The notes below the pieces were generated by a model. That model made no database searches. It was not told where the DNA came from and was given only the letters and a program-made list of their open reading frames with translations. The translations under genes were made by a program, and so were the position numbers. 64,000 nucleotides of DNA from Nitrospirota bacterium. GTDB taxonomy: Bacteria > Nitrospirota > JACRHJ01. This document shows, piece after piece, positions 26,297 through 32,142 of this stretch. How positions within the stretch are numbered: position 1 is the first letter of the stretch; each line of letters begins with the position of its first letter. The DNA is taken from assembly GCA_021784575.1 (NCBI GenBank), contig JAJYHX010000003.1:1-64000 (forward strand). Reading direction: 5' to 3'.

Positions 26297-27304
26297 ATGG
26301 GAAAAATCGGATTTACCACCACCGTCCCCGTGGAAGTTATCCTCGCCGCGGGGCTTATTCCGGCAGACTTAAACAACATCTTCATAACCGGGGCCGACCC
26401 AGGCGACGTCGTTGACCGCGCGGAGACGCTCGGTTTCCCCCGGACGACCTGCGGCTGGATCAAGGGGATATACCTCTCTGCGAAGGAGGCGGGGATAACG
26501 GACGTCGTTGCCGTTACGCAGGGGGACTGCTCGAATACGCACGCCCTGATGGAGCTCTGGCAGGCGGACGGGATGAACATCATGCCGTTCGCGTATCCGT
26601 ACGACCGGGACAGAGACCTGCTCAGGCTCCAGATGCGAAAACTCATGGACGCGCTCGGGACGAGCGAGGAAAAAACGGACAAGGTCTTCCGGGAATTGGC
26701 GCCGCTAAGGACGAAACTTAAGCGCGTGGACGAGATGACATGGAAGGACGGCAATGTCACGGGCGCGGAAAACCACCTCTGGCTTGTGTCCGCGAGCGAT
26801 TTCGACGGCGACAGGGATGACTTCGAGGCGCGGCTGGATGCTTTTTTAAAAGAGGCGGAGAAGCGCGAAACCGCTCCCACGGGTCGGCCCGGCGCCGGCC
26901 TGCCGGCTGTCCGCCTCGGATATATCGGGGTGCCGCCGATATTCACGGACATCTACGAGACGGCCGCGCGCTCGGGAGCGCACGTGGTATATAACGAAGT
27001 GCAGAGGCAGTTCTCCATGCCGCACGATACGGACAATTTATACGAACAATACGCCCGCTACACCTATCCCTACGACGTCTTCGGGCGCATCCGTGACATA
27101 AAAGAAGAGATAAAACTCCGGCGCATCGACGGCATAATACACTACTGCCAGAGCTTCTGCTTCAGGGCGATAGAAGACCTTATAGTAAGGCGCGAGCTGA
27201 AGCTCCCCGTCCTGACAATCGAAGGCGACAGACCGGGGCCGGTGGACGCCAGAACGCGCATCCGGCTGGAAGGGTTCGTCGAGATGCTGCGGGACATGAA
27301 ATGA
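26297..27304 (+). CDS. 2-hydroxyacyl-CoA dehydratase D-component-like (HgdB/double-cubane family) protein
   Basis: From ATG 26297 the protein has 335 residues. It matches the HgdB/BcrB superfamily: GKIGFTTTVPVEVILAAGLI at the start, RTTCGWIKGIY, AVTQGDCSNTHALMELW, FAYPYDRDRDLL and IIHYCQSFCFRAIEDLI, then TRIRLEGFVEML. Cysteines 52, 78, 284 and 288, the only ones seen, could hold an Fe-S cluster. Family members are activated by an ATP-driven one-electron donor, and the next gene encodes such an activator. A TTG frame start at 26261 coincides with the -35 box and was rejected. There is no second HgdA-like subunit, so it may act as a homodimer. The substrate is unknown. Confidence 0.85.
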   Translation: MGKIGFTTTVPVEVILAAGLIPADLNNIFITGADPGDVVDRAETLGFPRTTCGWIKGIYLSAKEAGITDVVAVTQGDCSNTHALMELWQADGMNIMPFAYPYDRDRDLLRLQMRKLMDALGTSEEKTDKVFRELAPLRTKLKRVDEMTWKDGNVTGAENHLWLVSASDFDGDRDDFEARLDAFLKEAEKRETAPTGRPGAGLPAVRLGYIGVPPIFTDIYETAARSGAHVVYNEVQRQFSMPHDTDNLYEQYARYTYPYDVFGRIRDIKEEIKLRRIDGIIHYCQSFCFRAIEDLIVRRELKLPVLTIEGDRPGPVDARTRIRLEGFVEMLRDMK

Positions 27305-27308
27305 CCGG

Positions 27309-27420
27309 CAATTATGGGAGCATCCTCGCAGAAAAAATATCTTGAACGTAAAACAAAGCTATAACCCAAAACAGTATTATTGTGAATAATATTTTCTCGG
27401 AGAGGATGCTCCCATAATTG
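27309..27420. repeat. 112-bp MITE-like element with 19-bp perfect inverted ends
   Basis: CAATTATGGGAGCATCCTC (27309-27327) is repeated as its exact reverse complement at 27402-27420. The similarity continues imperfectly inward (AGAAAAAATAT against ATATTTTCTC). The 74-base interior is AT-rich and non-coding. It lies between the dehydratase-like gene and its activator. No target duplication is obvious. Confidence 0.8.
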
Positions 27421-27437
27421 AACCTGGGAAACGAAAA

Positions 27438-28184
27438 ATGATCCGATGCGGGATGGATTTGGGAAGCAGGACGGTGAAGCTTGTCCTCGACGAGGACGGC
27501 GAAATCACGCTGAAGAGGAGCTTCGACACCGCCGCGTTCTACCGCGAATTCTGGAAGAGCAATGACGGCGAGCTCCGCGTGGACACGGCGCGGCTCGGCC
27601 TGCCGGAGAGCGGCCTTACCGTCACGGGCTACGGCAGGAACGCCGTTAAGGTTAAAGGCGCGCAGGTAATCTCCGAGGTGAAGGCGCATTGCATGGGCGC
27701 GGCGCGGCAGACGGGTCTTGACGACTTCGTCCTCCTCGACATCGGCGGGCAGGATACAAAAATCGCAAGGGTATCTGGCGGCAGGATGGAGAACTTCATG
27801 ATGAACGACAAGTGCGCCGCGTCGTCCGGGCGATATATCGAGAACATGTGCGGCGTGCTCCAGATGCCGCTCGACGAAATATCGCGCCACTTCGAGAACC
27901 CCGCGCGCCTCTCGGCCACATGCGCGATATTCGGGGAGAGCGAGATAATCCAGAAGATAACGGAGGGGACGCCGCCGGGCGAGATTGCGGCCGGCGTGAA
28001 CCTCTCCGTCGTGAAGCGCGTCCTCCCGATGCTTGCGAGGTTCCCGGACGGGCCGATTGTCTTCGCGGGCGGAGTCGCAAGGAACAAGGCGGTGACATAT
28101 TTCATAAAGGAACGGACCGGCCGGGAGGTGATTGTCGTCCCGGAGCCGGTATACAACGGGGCGATAGGATGCGCGTACTTGTAA
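27438..28184 (+). CDS. Acyl-CoA dehydratase/reductase activase (HgdC, BadF/BcrA family)
   Basis: A protein of 248 residues of the ASKHA fold. It uses ATP to drive a low-potential electron into a partner dehydratase or reductase. GMDLGSRTVKLVL (phosphate 1) is at the N-terminus, LLDIGGQDTKIARV (phosphate 2) near residue 100 and VFAGGVARNKAVTYFI (adenosine) near 210. The two cysteines expected to share a dimer-bridging [4Fe-4S] cluster are in NDKCAASSGRYIENM and SATCAIFGESEII. It follows the dehydratase-like gene after the inverted-repeat element and overlaps the next gene by 16 bases. Confidence 0.92.
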   Translation: MIRCGMDLGSRTVKLVLDEDGEITLKRSFDTAAFYREFWKSNDGELRVDTARLGLPESGLTVTGYGRNAVKVKGAQVISEVKAHCMGAARQTGLDDFVLLDIGGQDTKIARVSGGRMENFMMNDKCAASSGRYIENMCGVLQMPLDEISRHFENPARLSATCAIFGESEIIQKITEGTPPGEIAAGVNLSVVKRVLPMLARFPDGPIVFAGGVARNKAVTYFIKERTGREVIVVPEPVYNGAIGCAYL

Positions 28185-29626
28185 TCAGCACAAACAGAGA
28201 GATGTCCCCGCAGCCGGTTGCGCCGGTCGGCGCGGCGTGGATTGCGGAGGCGCTCTCACAGGCGGGTTTCAATACGCGCCTTCTCGATCTGTCTTTCGAG
28301 AAATACCCCGCCCGCAGGGTATTGAAGGAGCTTGCCGAATTCAGCCCCGAAGGCATTGCCGTCTCCGTCCGGAACGCGGACAACGGGGACTTCCTTAACC
28401 CCAGGAGCTTCCTGCCGGAAGTAAAGGAGATAACCGGGATTATCAGGGACAACAGCTCCGCGCGCATCATAATCGGCGGCCCCGGAGTCAGCATAATGCC
28501 CCGTGAGATGCTGGACTACCTCGGGCTTGACTGGGCCTGCATGGGCGAGGGCGAGGAGGCGGTCGCCGCATTCTTCAAGGCCGGAAAACCGGAGGACGCG
28601 GCTGGTTTTCCGGGCATAGTCTCAAGAAAATCGCCCCGGCATTGCGCGGAGCGCAGACAGTGGATAAAGCCGGACACCGTAAGACCCAGGCTGCACGGGT
28701 GGGTGGACGTGAAGCGGTATCTGAAGTTCGAGCCTGTCCTGCCCGTGCAGGGGAAGAGGGGCTGCGCCAACAACTGCCTGTATTGCACCTACAACCGCAT
28801 CGAGGGCCGGTTCTGGAGGCTCCGGGATCCGTCCGTCGTAACGGAGGAGATTTCCGAGCTGATATTCCGCACGGGCGCCCGGACGTTCGAGTTCGTGGAC
28901 AGCATATTCAACCAGCCGGAAGGCTACATGGAGGCCCTGCTCGAAGAGATTATAAGATGGGACCTTAAGGCGAAATTCCACGTGTCGTCCATGAGCCCGA
29001 AGGGCCTGACCAAAAAACAGGTCTCCCTGATGGAGCGTGCGGGCATAACCGCCGCCGGCATAACGCCCGAAGCCGCCGCGGACGAGACGCTCGGCTCGCT
29101 CCGTAAGGGATTCGGCGAGCCGGAGGTTTACAGGGCGGCGGAAATCTTGAACGGCTCGTCCATAAAAATGCTCTGGTGCTTCCTCATGGGCGGCCCGAAA
29201 GAGGACGAGACCACGGTCAAAAAGACGCTAAAGTTTATAAACGCGATCCCGTCGAAGGACAAGGCGTTTCTAACCGCCGGCATCCGCATATATCCGCACA
29301 CCGGTATGCACGAGCTGGCGATACGGGAGGGAATACTCCCGCCATCGGAGACTCTGCTGATGCCTTCGTTTTATTTCACGGACAGGCTCTCTCCGGACGA
29401 GATGAGAAAGATGCTGGAAGAGGGCCTCAGCGACAGCCGCAAGGTGATTTTCCTGACGGACACGAACTTCCCGTCGCTTGGGGCCTTGCGCTGGATCGGC
29501 ACAAAGCTTAAGCTCCCCTCGCCCTTCTGGAGCTACGCGAACTACATGAACCTGATGCTCTCCGGGAGAAGGGTGATAAACAGGGAGTGGCGCGGGGCGA
29601 ATTCTATTGACAACTCGCGCCGTTGA
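28169..29626 (+). CDS. B12-binding-domain radical SAM protein
   Basis: From ATG 28169, overlapping the activase by 16 bases, the protein has 485 residues. Residues 1 to about 150 form a Rossmann-like B12-binding domain: MRVLVISTNREMSPQPVAPV and IIIGGPGVSIMPREML, then ACMGEGEEAVAAFF. The radical SAM core starts near residue 190 with the cluster motif CANNCLYC. It continues with FEFVDSIFNQPEGYMEALLE and LWCFLMGGPKEDETT. The chemistry of this subfamily cannot be read from the sequence. Tight overlap with the activase suggests a shared pathway. The long frame upstream to 27812 is only the shadow of the activase gene. Confidence 0.88.
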   Translation: MRVLVISTNREMSPQPVAPVGAAWIAEALSQAGFNTRLLDLSFEKYPARRVLKELAEFSPEGIAVSVRNADNGDFLNPRSFLPEVKEITGIIRDNSSARIIIGGPGVSIMPREMLDYLGLDWACMGEGEEAVAAFFKAGKPEDAAGFPGIVSRKSPRHCAERRQWIKPDTVRPRLHGWVDVKRYLKFEPVLPVQGKRGCANNCLYCTYNRIEGRFWRLRDPSVVTEEISELIFRTGARTFEFVDSIFNQPEGYMEALLEEIIRWDLKAKFHVSSMSPKGLTKKQVSLMERAGITAAGITPEAAADETLGSLRKGFGEPEVYRAAEILNGSSIKMLWCFLMGGPKEDETTVKKTLKFINAIPSKDKAFLTAGIRIYPHTGMHELAIREGILPPSETLLMPSFYFTDRLSPDEMRKMLEEGLSDSRKVIFLTDTNFPSLGALRWIGTKLKLPSPFWSYANYMNLMLSGRRVINREWRGANSIDNSRR

Positions 29627-30167: not shown

Positions 30168-30207
30168 TTTCGTATGCTAAATATGTAAGCATATGGAGGA
30201 TGCAAGC

Positions 30208-32142
30208 ATGAATAACGACACCGTAACCGGCAAGGCAAGGGGCGGGAAGGCGCGCGCGGAGAAGCTCACTCCCGGCCAGAGAAGGGAAATCGCGCGCAGG
30301 GCGGCGGAAGCAAGATGGCAATCCGAAACAAACAAGGCGGGGATTACAATGAACAACGAAAACAGGCTCCTTAAGGAGCGAACAAAGTTTGAGCTTCAGG
30401 ACGTCTCCGAACCCAACCTGTTCCGGGAATACTTCCCGTATTCGGAGGTGCCTAAGCTCCCGTTTTCAGACCGCATCGTGCCGATGGAGCTTCCGAAGGA
30501 CATTTTCATTACGGATACCACCTTCCGGGACGGGCAGCAGTCCCGCCCGCCGTATACGCCGGCCGAGATGGCGGCAATCTTCGACTTCCTGCACAGGATG
30601 AGCGGCGAGAGAGGCGTCATAAGACAGACTGAATTTTTCCTTTATTCCGACAAGGACAAGGAGGCCGTCCGGCTCTGCATGGAGCGCGGATACCGCTTCC
30701 CGGAGATTACCGGCTGGATACGCGCGGTAAAGAGCGACTTCCAGCTCGTGAAGGACATGGGCCTCAAGGAGACCGGCATTCTCGTCTCCTGCTCGGACTA
30801 CCACATATTCCTTAAGCTGGGCATGACGCGCAAGAAGGCGATGGAGCAGTACATGTCCGTCATAAAGGCCGCGCTCGACGCGGGCATCATACCGCGCTGC
30901 CACTTCGAGGACATAACGAGGGCGGACTTCCCCGGCTTCGTGATACCATTCGCGCAGGAGCTTATGCGGCTGTCCGAAGAGGCGCGCATACCCATCAAAA
31001 TCCGCGCGTGCGACACGATGGGATACGGCGTGCCCTATACAGGCGCGGCGCTCCCAAGGGGCGTGCCGGAGATAATATACTCCTTAAGGCGTCATGCGGG
31101 AGTCCCGCCGGAGCTTCTGGAGTGGCACGGGCACAACGACTTCCACAAGGGCCTTGTCAACGCCACGACCGCATGGCTTTACGGCTGCGCCTCGGCCAAC
31201 GGCGCGCTCCTGGGATTCGGAGAGCGCACCGGCAACACGCCCGTTGAGGCGCTGCTGGTGGAATATGCGAGCATCACCGGCGGGACAAACGGCGCCGACC
31301 TCACAGCAATAACCGAGATGGCCGGATATTTCCAGCGGGAGCTGAAATTTAACGTCCCGGCCAACTTCCCGTTCGTCGGCGCGGACTTCAACAACACCGC
31401 CGCGGGCATACACGCCGACGGCGCGATGAAGAACGAGGAGATATATAATATCTTCGACACGACAAGGCTTCTGAACCGCCCGATGGGCGTCATAATAACG
31501 GACAAGTCCGGGATCGCGGGCATCGCGCTCTGGGCCAGCAACTACCTCGGCCTTTCCGGGGAGAAGGCCGTGGACAAGCGGCATCCCGGAGTGGCCAAGA
31601 TACACAAGTGGGTCATGGAGCAGTACGCCCAGGGACGCACGACCAATATCTCCCGCGACGAGATGGCGGAGAAGGTGAAGAAACACCTCTCAGAGTTCCT
31701 GGTCTCCGACCTCGACGTCATAAAGCAGAAGGCCCGGGATGTCGCAGTCCATCTAATCGAAGGCGTCGTGGCGGAAGAGGCGTTCAGGCGGATAAACAAA
31801 AAAGGCATGGAGGCGGCCCTGCAGAAGCTCCTCGACGAAAATCCGTTCATACAGTTCGCCTATGTCGTGAATACCGAGGGCAGGAAGGTTACGAAGAACC
31901 TCACGCAGATAATCGACCGGGCTACATACGAGCACTTCGGCCTGGACGAGGACTTCTCGGACAGAAGCTGGTTCATCAACCCCATGAAGGACGGAAAGAC
32001 CTTCGTGACGAACTTCTACACCTCCAAGATTACCGGGGCGCTGGCAATAACCGTCTCCACGCCCGTCCGGGACAACGGGGACGACATTATCGGCGTCCTG
32101 GGCATCGACATGAAGTTCGAGGACCTTGTGAAGGCGGAATAA
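30208..32142 (+). CDS. Citrate/isopropylmalate-synthase-like enzyme (HMGL family) fused to a C-terminal Cache-type domain
   Basis: A protein of 644 residues from ATG 30208 (GGAGG eight bases upstream). Residues 1-40 are a basic GGKARAEKLTPGQRREIARR segment. The catalytic TIM barrel runs about 95-400: ITDTTFRDGQQSR (metal Asp), FEDITRADFPGF, LEWHGHNDFHKG (HxH metal site) and NNTAAGIHADGAMK. The family condenses acetyl-CoA with 2-oxoacids (isopropylmalate, homocitrate, Re-citrate synthases). Next to frd and suc genes, Re-citrate synthase is the favoured guess but unproven. Residues about 545-644 (AYVVNTEGRKVT, DFSDRSWFINPM, TVSTPVRDNGDDIIGVLGID) look like a PDC/Cache ligand-binding domain, normally extracytoplasmic. 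No membrane segment is present. An internal ATG at 30349 could give a shorter form. Confidence 0.8.
   Translation: MNNDTVTGKARGGKARAEKLTPGQRREIARRAAEARWQSETNKAGITMNNENRLLKERTKFELQDVSEPNLFREYFPYSEVPKLPFSDRIVPMELPKDIFITDTTFRDGQQSRPPYTPAEMAAIFDFLHRMSGERGVIRQTEFFLYSDKDKEAVRLCMERGYRFPEITGWIRAVKSDFQLVKDMGLKETGILVSCSDYHIFLKLGMTRKKAMEQYMSVIKAALDAGIIPRCHFEDITRADFPGFVIPFAQELMRLSEEARIPIKIRACDTMGYGVPYTGAALPRGVPEIIYSLRRHAGVPPELLEWHGHNDFHKGLVNATTAWLYGCASANGALLGFGERTGNTPVEALLVEYASITGGTNGADLTAITEMAGYFQRELKFNVPANFPFVGADFNNTAAGIHADGAMKNEEIYNIFDTTRLLNRPMGVIITDKSGIAGIALWASNYLGLSGEKAVDKRHPGVAKIHKWVMEQYAQGRTTNISRDEMAEKVKKHLSEFLVSDLDVIKQKARDVAVHLIEGVVAEEAFRRINKKGMEAALQKLLDENPFIQFAYVVNTEGRKVTKNLTQIIDRATYEHFGLDEDFSDRSWFINPMKDGKTFVTNFYTSKITGALAITVSTPVRDNGDDIIGVLGIDMKFEDLVKAE

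What the first reader, a model, noticed from the sequence alone, without database searches (positions are those of the whole stretch)
26297..29626. Compact ATP-driven reductase module: HgdB-like protein, activase and B12 radical SAM enzyme
The sequence shows a single 335-residue dehydratase/double-cubane-family protein (Cys52, 78, 284, 288), its ASKHA activase with both cluster cysteines, and a B12-binding radical SAM protein overlapping the activase by 16 bases. Established members need an ATP-dependent electron injector to do reductions at very low potential. There is no second dehydratase subunit, CoA-transferase or acyl-CoA enzyme nearby, so the usual amino-acid fermentation role is not supported. 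An uncharacterised low-potential reduction linked to radical SAM chemistry is an inference.
Basis: partly seen in the sequence, partly recalled or inferred. Interest (0 to 1): 0.6.

Follow-up and report, generated by a model that had tools for sequence, protein, structure and literature searches.

The report
Uncharacterised ATP-driven iron-sulphur reductase pair

Summary
The three genes are real, at the stated coordinates, and under purifying selection. HgdB-like (26297-27304) is full-length PF06050; the activase (27438-28184) passes TIGR00241; the third (28169-29626) is a B12-binding radical SAM protein nearest TIGR04072 ('lipid biosynthesis'), just under its cut-off. The TRIAD is not a conserved module: the radical SAM gene follows the activase only in this Nitrospirota genus. 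In the sister genus it lies elsewhere, next to fabF, and it is beside the pair in none of the other loci fetched. The PAIR is conserved: 54 of 70 loci (two as gene fusions) in many phyla, and 69 of 398 sampled Bacillota genomes carry the HgdB protein. HgdB proteins and paired activases each form one clade at 100/100 support, outside the double-cubane and HadC/BcrC/BzdN-like sequences tested. Only Cys52, Cys78 and Cys288 are invariant, matching the three cysteines shared by all the relatives; every extra double-cubane cysteine is missing and Cys284 is local. Best reading: a dedicated ATP-driven low-potential reductase with one three-cysteine [4Fe-4S] cluster, not a double-cubane enzyme and not an amino-acid-fermentation dehydratase. 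The substrate is unknown; glutamate-mutase, queuosine, lipid and corrinoid links were examined and none is established.

The parts
26297..27304 (+). HgdB-like [4Fe-4S] reductase subunit (335 aa); putative cluster ligands Cys52, Cys78, Cys288
   Evidence: PF06050 E=6.7e-39; AlphaFold model pLDDT 90.8 matches DCCP 6eno and HadC 3o3n_B, TMq 0.74-0.78; three invariant Cys; own clade 100/100
27309..27420 (.). MITE/REP-like inverted-repeat element (32-nt arms, 91% complementary) inserted between HgdB and activase genes only in this genome; it displaced the original overlapping activase start
   Evidence: z = -6.5; absent in G003, G004, G001
27438..28184 (+). ASKHA activase (ATP-dependent electron injector, 248 aa); Cys126 and Cys162 the expected ligands of the dimer-bridging cluster
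   Evidence: TIGR00241 169.5 bits > 125.4; 1hux E=5e-37; belongs to the HgdB-paired activase clade, 100/100
28169..29626 (+). B12-binding radical SAM protein (485 aa); genus-level neighbour, not part of the conserved pair
   Evidence: PF02310 + PF04055; TIGR04072 330.7 bits, cut-off 360; adjacency only in the window genus

Best explanation
The HgdB-like protein and the activase form a dedicated two-component, ATP-driven reductase (an 'archerase' system). The activase homodimer carries one [4Fe-4S] cluster between its subunits (Cys126/Cys162 of each), takes an electron from a low-potential carrier such as ferredoxin, and ATP hydrolysis drives that electron into the HgdB-like protein. The latter, most likely a homodimer, holds one [4Fe-4S] cluster per subunit on three cysteines (Cys52, Cys78, Cys288), leaving one iron open to bind and reduce a small substrate or cofactor. 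It is not a double-cubane enzyme and not an amino-acid-fermentation 2-hydroxyacyl-CoA dehydratase. The adjacent B12-radical SAM enzyme is a genus-specific operon partner, probably for lipid or cofactor modification, and is not needed for the pair's core function. Shown here: gene structure, family, fold, invariant cysteines, pairing and co-divergence. Inferred: cluster occupancy, ATP-driven electron transfer, oligomeric state. Unknown: the substrate.
For: PF06050 and TIGR00241 above curated cut-offs. Fold match to DCCP and HadC. Cys52/78/288 coincide with the three cysteines shared by DCCP, YjiM, HadC, BzdN and MbdN; in HadBC three cysteines hold each cluster (PMC11574389). Activase adjacent in 52 of 70 loci, usually overlapping or within 75 nt, plus two HgdB-activase fusions. 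Paired activases form one clade and the HgdB proteins form one clade, both 100/100: a dedicated pair. Usually one copy per genome; 69 of 398 sampled Bacillota genomes. Purifying selection.
Against: Some lineages (Dehalococcoidia, Planctomycetes, Armatimonadetes, Scalindua) have no adjacent activase; the small Dehalococcoidia genome G412 has a single activase of another clade, so there the partner differs or is unused. No biochemistry exists; the open coordination site, a homodimer and any substrate are inferences. Neighbourhoods outside close relatives are diverse and point to no common pathway.
Confidence: 0.72

Rival explanations
1. In this genus the three genes act together on lipids: the ATP-driven reductase supplies or modifies a lipid intermediate used by a ladderane-type B12 radical SAM enzyme.
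For: Nearest model of the rSAM is TIGR04072 'lipid biosynthesis B12/radical SAM' (330.7 bits; 339.5 for the G001 ortholog); the G001 ortholog overlaps fabF (496 bits, over the TIGR03150 cut-off). [quoted passage not shown] A B12-rSAM (Kuste2803) is a ladderane candidate (PMC2649909).
Against: TIGR04072 cut-off not reached; the following gene in the window reads as nucleoside diphosphate kinase, not a lipid gene; HgdB-activase pairs elsewhere have no lipid neighbours as a rule; pair and rSAM are unlinked in G001.
Confidence: 0.15
2. The pair is a reductive (re)activator of corrinoid enzymes, reducing cob(II)alamin to cob(I)alamin at very low potential.
For: B12-binding genes occur near the pair: the B12-rSAM in this genus, glutamate mutase in 14 Bacillota genomes, a MetH-like protein in L030, a mutase B12 subunit in L037, a corrinoid protein in L040. 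About 0.9 such loci would be expected among 15 non-Bacillota loci and 4 were seen (my estimate; post hoc).
Against: Outside the glutamate-mutase operons and the window genus the B12 genes lie 4-6.5 kb away, two of them on the opposite strand; many genomes with the pair have no glutamate mutase; G412 has the HgdB but no B12-binding domain hit.
Confidence: 0.12
3. The pair works in queuosine/7-deazaguanine tRNA modification, for example as an alternative epoxyqueuosine reductase.
For: hgdB-activase-queC-queD-queE is one operon in L184; hgdB overlaps the end of queE in Armatimonadetes L033; queD/queE/folE/queC lie about 2 kb from the pair in Clostridium bowmanii L038.
Against: QueG is present in two of those three genomes (G739, G411), so no replacement pattern; most loci have no que genes. 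QueH and QueA were not tested.
Confidence: 0.07
4. The pair serves the methylaspartate (glutamate mutase) fermentation pathway.
For: In about 13 fetched Bacillota loci the pair sits inside glmS-glmL-glmE-mal-hgdB-activase operons.
Against: glmE occurs in 18 of 59 genomes with and 5 of 21 without the HgdB; most genomes with the pair, the window's included, lack glmE.
Confidence: 0.05

Closest known systems
Double-cubane cluster protein DCCP and its reductase DCCP-R (PDB 6eno, 7yyl); E. coli YjiM/YjiL
   Same: Best sequence-profile hit (7e-17) and structural hit; single-gene reductase paired with one activase; not a CoA-enzyme operon
   Different: 39.8 bits against the 350 cut-off of NF040772 (YjiM scores 531); the additional conserved cysteines of DCCP/YjiM are all missing; 335 instead of 380-420 residues; separate clades, each 100/100
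2-Hydroxyacyl-CoA dehydratases HadBC / HgdAB with activases HadI / HgdC
   Same: HGD-D fold (HadC TMq 0.78), the same three cysteines, same activase family (1hux E=5e-37)
   Different: One subunit instead of two different ones; no hit to the HadB/HadC models at E<=0.01; a separate clade
Class I benzoyl-CoA reductases (Bcr, Bzd, Mbd)
   Same: Superfamily, three cysteines, activase subunits homologous to BcrA/D
   Different: Two-gene rather than four-subunit system; no BcrB/C or BzdN/O model hit at E<=0.01
Plasmalogen synthase PlsA/PlsR
   Same: Same superfamily, ATP activase plus reductase domains; precedent for non-CoA chemistry
   Different: PlsA-type proteins are long multi-domain polypeptides; the window genome has a separate ~1,400-aa double-activase protein of that size elsewhere
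TIGR04072 ladderane-type B12 radical SAM proteins (third gene only)
   Same: Full-length match, B12 plus radical SAM domains
   Different: 330.7 bits, below the 360 cut-off; only 31-36% identical to paralogs in the same genome

Membership tests
PF06050 HGD-D (2-hydroxyacyl-CoA dehydratase / benzoyl-CoA reductase / DCCP superfamily) | Score over the Pfam gathering threshold across the whole domain | tested here: met
   134.8 bits against 28.4, positions 2-342 of 342
PF06050 HGD-D superfamily | Three cluster cysteines | tested here: met
   Cys52, 78, 288 invariant in the family and aligned with Cys in all DCC, HadC, BzdN and MbdN rows
PF06050 HGD-D superfamily | Bound [4Fe-4S] cluster with ATP-dependent reduction | not testable with these tools
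   Needs anaerobic purification and EPR/Moessbauer
Double-cubane anaerobic reductase (NF040772) | Equivalog score at or above 350 bits | tested here: not met
   39.8 bits for the window protein; 45.8-55.6 for relatives; YjiM 531.4
Double-cubane anaerobic reductase (NF040772) | Extra cysteines conserved in DCCP/YjiM beyond the common three | tested here: not met
   Columns with Cys in all four DCC sequences hold T, S, N or a gap in all 18 family members
2-Hydroxyacyl-CoA dehydratase (HadBC/HgdAB) | Two different HGD-D subunits | tested here: not met
   One PF06050 protein in the whole genome
2-Hydroxyacyl-CoA dehydratase (HadBC/HgdAB) | HadB/HadC equivalog match | tested here: not met
   No NF052455/NF052456 hit at E<=0.01
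Benzoyl-CoA reductase class I | Equivalog match to BcrB/C, BzdN/O | tested here: not met
   No hit at E<=0.01 for the HgdB-like protein; the activase gives only sub-cut-off TIGR02259/02261/03192 hits
Acyl-CoA dehydratase activase (TIGR00241) | Score over cut-off and two conserved cysteines | tested here: met
   169.5 bits against 125.4; Cys126 and Cys162 kept in all Nitrospirota orthologs
TIGR04072 lipid biosynthesis B12-binding/radical SAM | Equivalog score at or above 360 bits | tested here: not met
   330.7 bits; G001 ortholog 339.5; a paralog from G002 354.9
Plasmalogen synthase PlsA/PlsR | Activation and reduction domains combined in the synthase (PMC12838417) | tested here: not met
   Two separate short genes with one activase domain and one HGD-D domain
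   Kept in the genus only; absent in G001 and in the other loci

The most novel reading that the evidence does not exclude
The pair is a third kind of stand-alone ATP-driven low-potential reductase, next to double-cubane proteins and dehydratases/benzoyl-CoA reductases: a minimal homodimer with one site-differentiated [4Fe-4S] per subunit, widespread in anaerobes and acting on a substrate (perhaps a corrinoid, lipid or tRNA-precursor group) not yet known for this superfamily.
Probability: 0.35. Interest if true: 0.75.

Novelty: new variant of a known kind. Interest (0 to 1): 0.5.

Why it matters
ATP-driven electron injectors perform some of the hardest reductions in biology (benzene rings, inactivated C-OH bonds, nitrogenase-like small molecules). 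A compact, single-subunit branch with its own activase, carried by about one in six sampled Bacillota genomes and scattered over many phyla, has no assigned function; finding its substrate would assign a widespread anaerobe gene pair and could add a reaction type. The three-cysteine arrangement also offers the simplest setting in which to study how such an enzyme uses one cluster.

Tried and rejected
Three-gene module: rejected, the rSAM is adjacent only in the genus. Double-cubane enzyme: rejected by score and by missing cysteines. Fermentative dehydratase: rejected, one subunit only and outside the clades tested. Glutamate-mutase partner: operonic in 14 genomes, but glmE is about as common without the pair as with it (5/21 against 18/59). 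Epoxyqueuosine reductase replacement: three que-linked loci, but QueG is present in two of those genomes. Corrinoid reactivation: weak, post hoc enrichment only. Selenium-linked HgdB/activase genes of PMC5322559 were read; no selenium genes were recognised among the neighbours I read. Fold search hits below rank 16 (metal-binding ABC proteins, TM 0.2) are irrelevant. Literature searches found no paper naming this family. The DCCP paper (PMC5866592) was not held, so the double-cubane ligand set was judged from aligned sequences, not from that paper.
Full report
WHAT IS THERE. The window lies in a Nitrospirota MAG (genome G000, 2.1 Mb; relatives are titled 'Nitrospirae bacterium'). The three ORFs exist as described. 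HgdB-like 26297-27304 (335 aa) matches PF06050 end to end (E=6.7e-39), the activase 27438-28184 (248 aa) passes TIGR00241 (169.5 > 125.4 bits), and 28169-29626 is a B12-binding radical SAM protein whose best NCBIfam model is TIGR04072 'lipid biosynthesis B12-binding/radical SAM' at 330.7 bits, below the cut-off of 360. The last two overlap by 16 bases. All three are under purifying selection relative to the congener G003 (dN/dS 0.14-0.24). The genome has exactly one PF06050 protein.

THE TRIAD. In the genus the order HgdB-activase-rSAM is kept in G003 and G004; in G005 the contig begins at the activase and shows activase-rSAM; G002 (87% complete) gave no match to the HgdB. In the sister genus G001 the pair is intact but flanked by unrelated genes, and the rSAM ortholog (65%) lies on another contig, overlapping a fabF gene (496 bits, over the TIGR03150 cut-off). 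Among 396 Nitrospirota genomes only this family's members carry the HgdB protein. In 29 loci from the GTDB collection, from Syntrophomonadaceae to Planctomycetes, Armatimonadetes, Dehalococcoidia, Clostridium, Scalindua and Wallbacteria, the only one with an rSAM of this type near the pair is the congener G003 itself (L045), and a B12-domain scan of the wider set again found it only in the genus. The triad is therefore a genus-level arrangement.

THE PAIR. The HgdB-activase pair is a unit. A profile of the family found it in 69 of 398 sampled Bacillota genomes, almost always once. In 70 loci, 52 have the activase directly downstream on the same strand, most overlapping or within 75 nt (gaps estimated from the GxDxGS motif), and two more (L044, L046) carry HgdB and activase fused in one protein. 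The 70 include two near-duplicate pairs of loci and several truncated contigs. A maximum-likelihood tree places the 18 family members tested on one branch (100/100, length 2.9), apart from the double-cubane group (YjiM, DCCP, also 100/100) and from HadC, BzdN, MbdN and BcrC-like sequences (the DCCP, HadC, BzdN and MbdN rows were taken from the alignments printed). The paired activases form one clade (100/100) apart from YjiL and other activases of the same genomes; the two 'other' rows inside it (L074, L075) are the same genes as PAIR_L030 and PAIR_L041.

CYSTEINES AND FOLD. Cys52, Cys78 and Cys288 are invariant. In a joint alignment they fall on the three columns that are cysteine in every DCC, HadC, BzdN, MbdN and BcrC-like row; the further columns that are cysteine in all four DCC rows hold Thr/Ser, Asn or gaps in every family member. 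The AlphaFold model (mean pLDDT 90.8) matches DCCP (6eno) and HadC (3o3n_B) with TM-scores 0.74-0.78. In HadBC each subunit's cluster is held by three cysteines and the alpha cluster has an open iron (PMC11574389). The likeliest anatomy is thus one three-cysteine [4Fe-4S] per subunit, reduced through the activase; this step is inference.

FUNCTION. Neighbours were read to find a substrate. In Bacillota the pair commonly lies between murI and rph-rdgB-yfcE, a background neighbourhood of housekeeping genes. In about 13 fetched loci it is inside a glutamate-mutase/methylaspartase operon (glmS-glmL-glmE-mal-hgdB-activase), but glmE is about as common in genomes without the HgdB (5/21) as with it (18/59), and most genomes with the pair, including the window's, lack it. 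It abuts queuosine genes in L184 (hgdB-activase-queC-queD-queE), L033 (queE-hgdB) and lies near them in L038; QueG is nevertheless present in two of those three genomes. B12 genes are somewhat frequent around the pair in non-Bacillota loci (4 seen, about 0.9 expected by my estimate), a post hoc observation. Gene names in neighbourhoods other than those cited to a model were assigned by eye from sequence. None of these links is established. The lipid reading rests on TIGR04072, on fabF beside the rSAM in G001, and on the precedent of plasmalogen synthase, a member of the 2-hydroxyacyl-CoA dehydratase family (PMC12838417); it concerns the rSAM more than the pair.

THE INSERT. Between HgdB and activase lies a 112-bp inverted repeat (27309-27420; 32-nt arms, DNA fold z = -6.5), absent in G003, G004 and G001, where the genes overlap or nearly touch. 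It displaced the original activase start; the ATG at 27438 now serves as the likely start.

VERDICT. The B12-rSAM link is local. What remains is a dedicated, widespread, uncharacterised reductase-activase pair that forms its own deep clade of a known superfamily: a new variant of a known kind with an unknown substrate.

Noticed in passing
window 27309-27420: MITE/REP-like inverted-repeat element inserted between the HgdB and activase genes in this genome only; no other copy in the window. Other copies in the genome were not searched for.
   Followed up: partly
G000:C6:418493-420169 (other contig of the same genome): A ~1,399-aa protein with two tandem activase domains, a size and arrangement like plasmalogen synthase PlsA; also in G001, G003, G004 and many genomes that carry the HgdB pair. 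Possible ether-lipid capacity in Nitrospirota.
   Followed up: partly
window 30193-32142: A 649-aa protein that reads as an isopropylmalate/citrate-synthase-like (HMGL) enzyme with a Cache-like sensory stretch at its C-terminus, directly upstream of succinate dehydrogenase/fumarate reductase and succinyl-CoA ligase genes; perhaps a Re-citrate synthase fused to a sensor. Read by eye only.
   Followed up: no
L044:165-2057 and L046:7122-8981: Natural fusion of the HgdB-like reductase with its activase in Wallbacteria and UBP16, a good construct for biochemistry.
   Followed up: partly
L184:6547-10196: hgdB-activase-queC-queD-queE in one operon, and queE-hgdB overlap in Armatimonadetes L033: an unexplained tie to 7-deazaguanine genes.
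   Followed up: partly
L019:9433-12137 (G001): Ortholog of the window's B12-radical SAM protein overlapping a fabF gene, a hint at acyl-chain chemistry for this rSAM.
   Followed up: partly
L163 (G580:C16): A ~1.4-kb insertion separates HgdB and activase in one Bacillota genome, an independent interruption of the pair.
   Followed up: no
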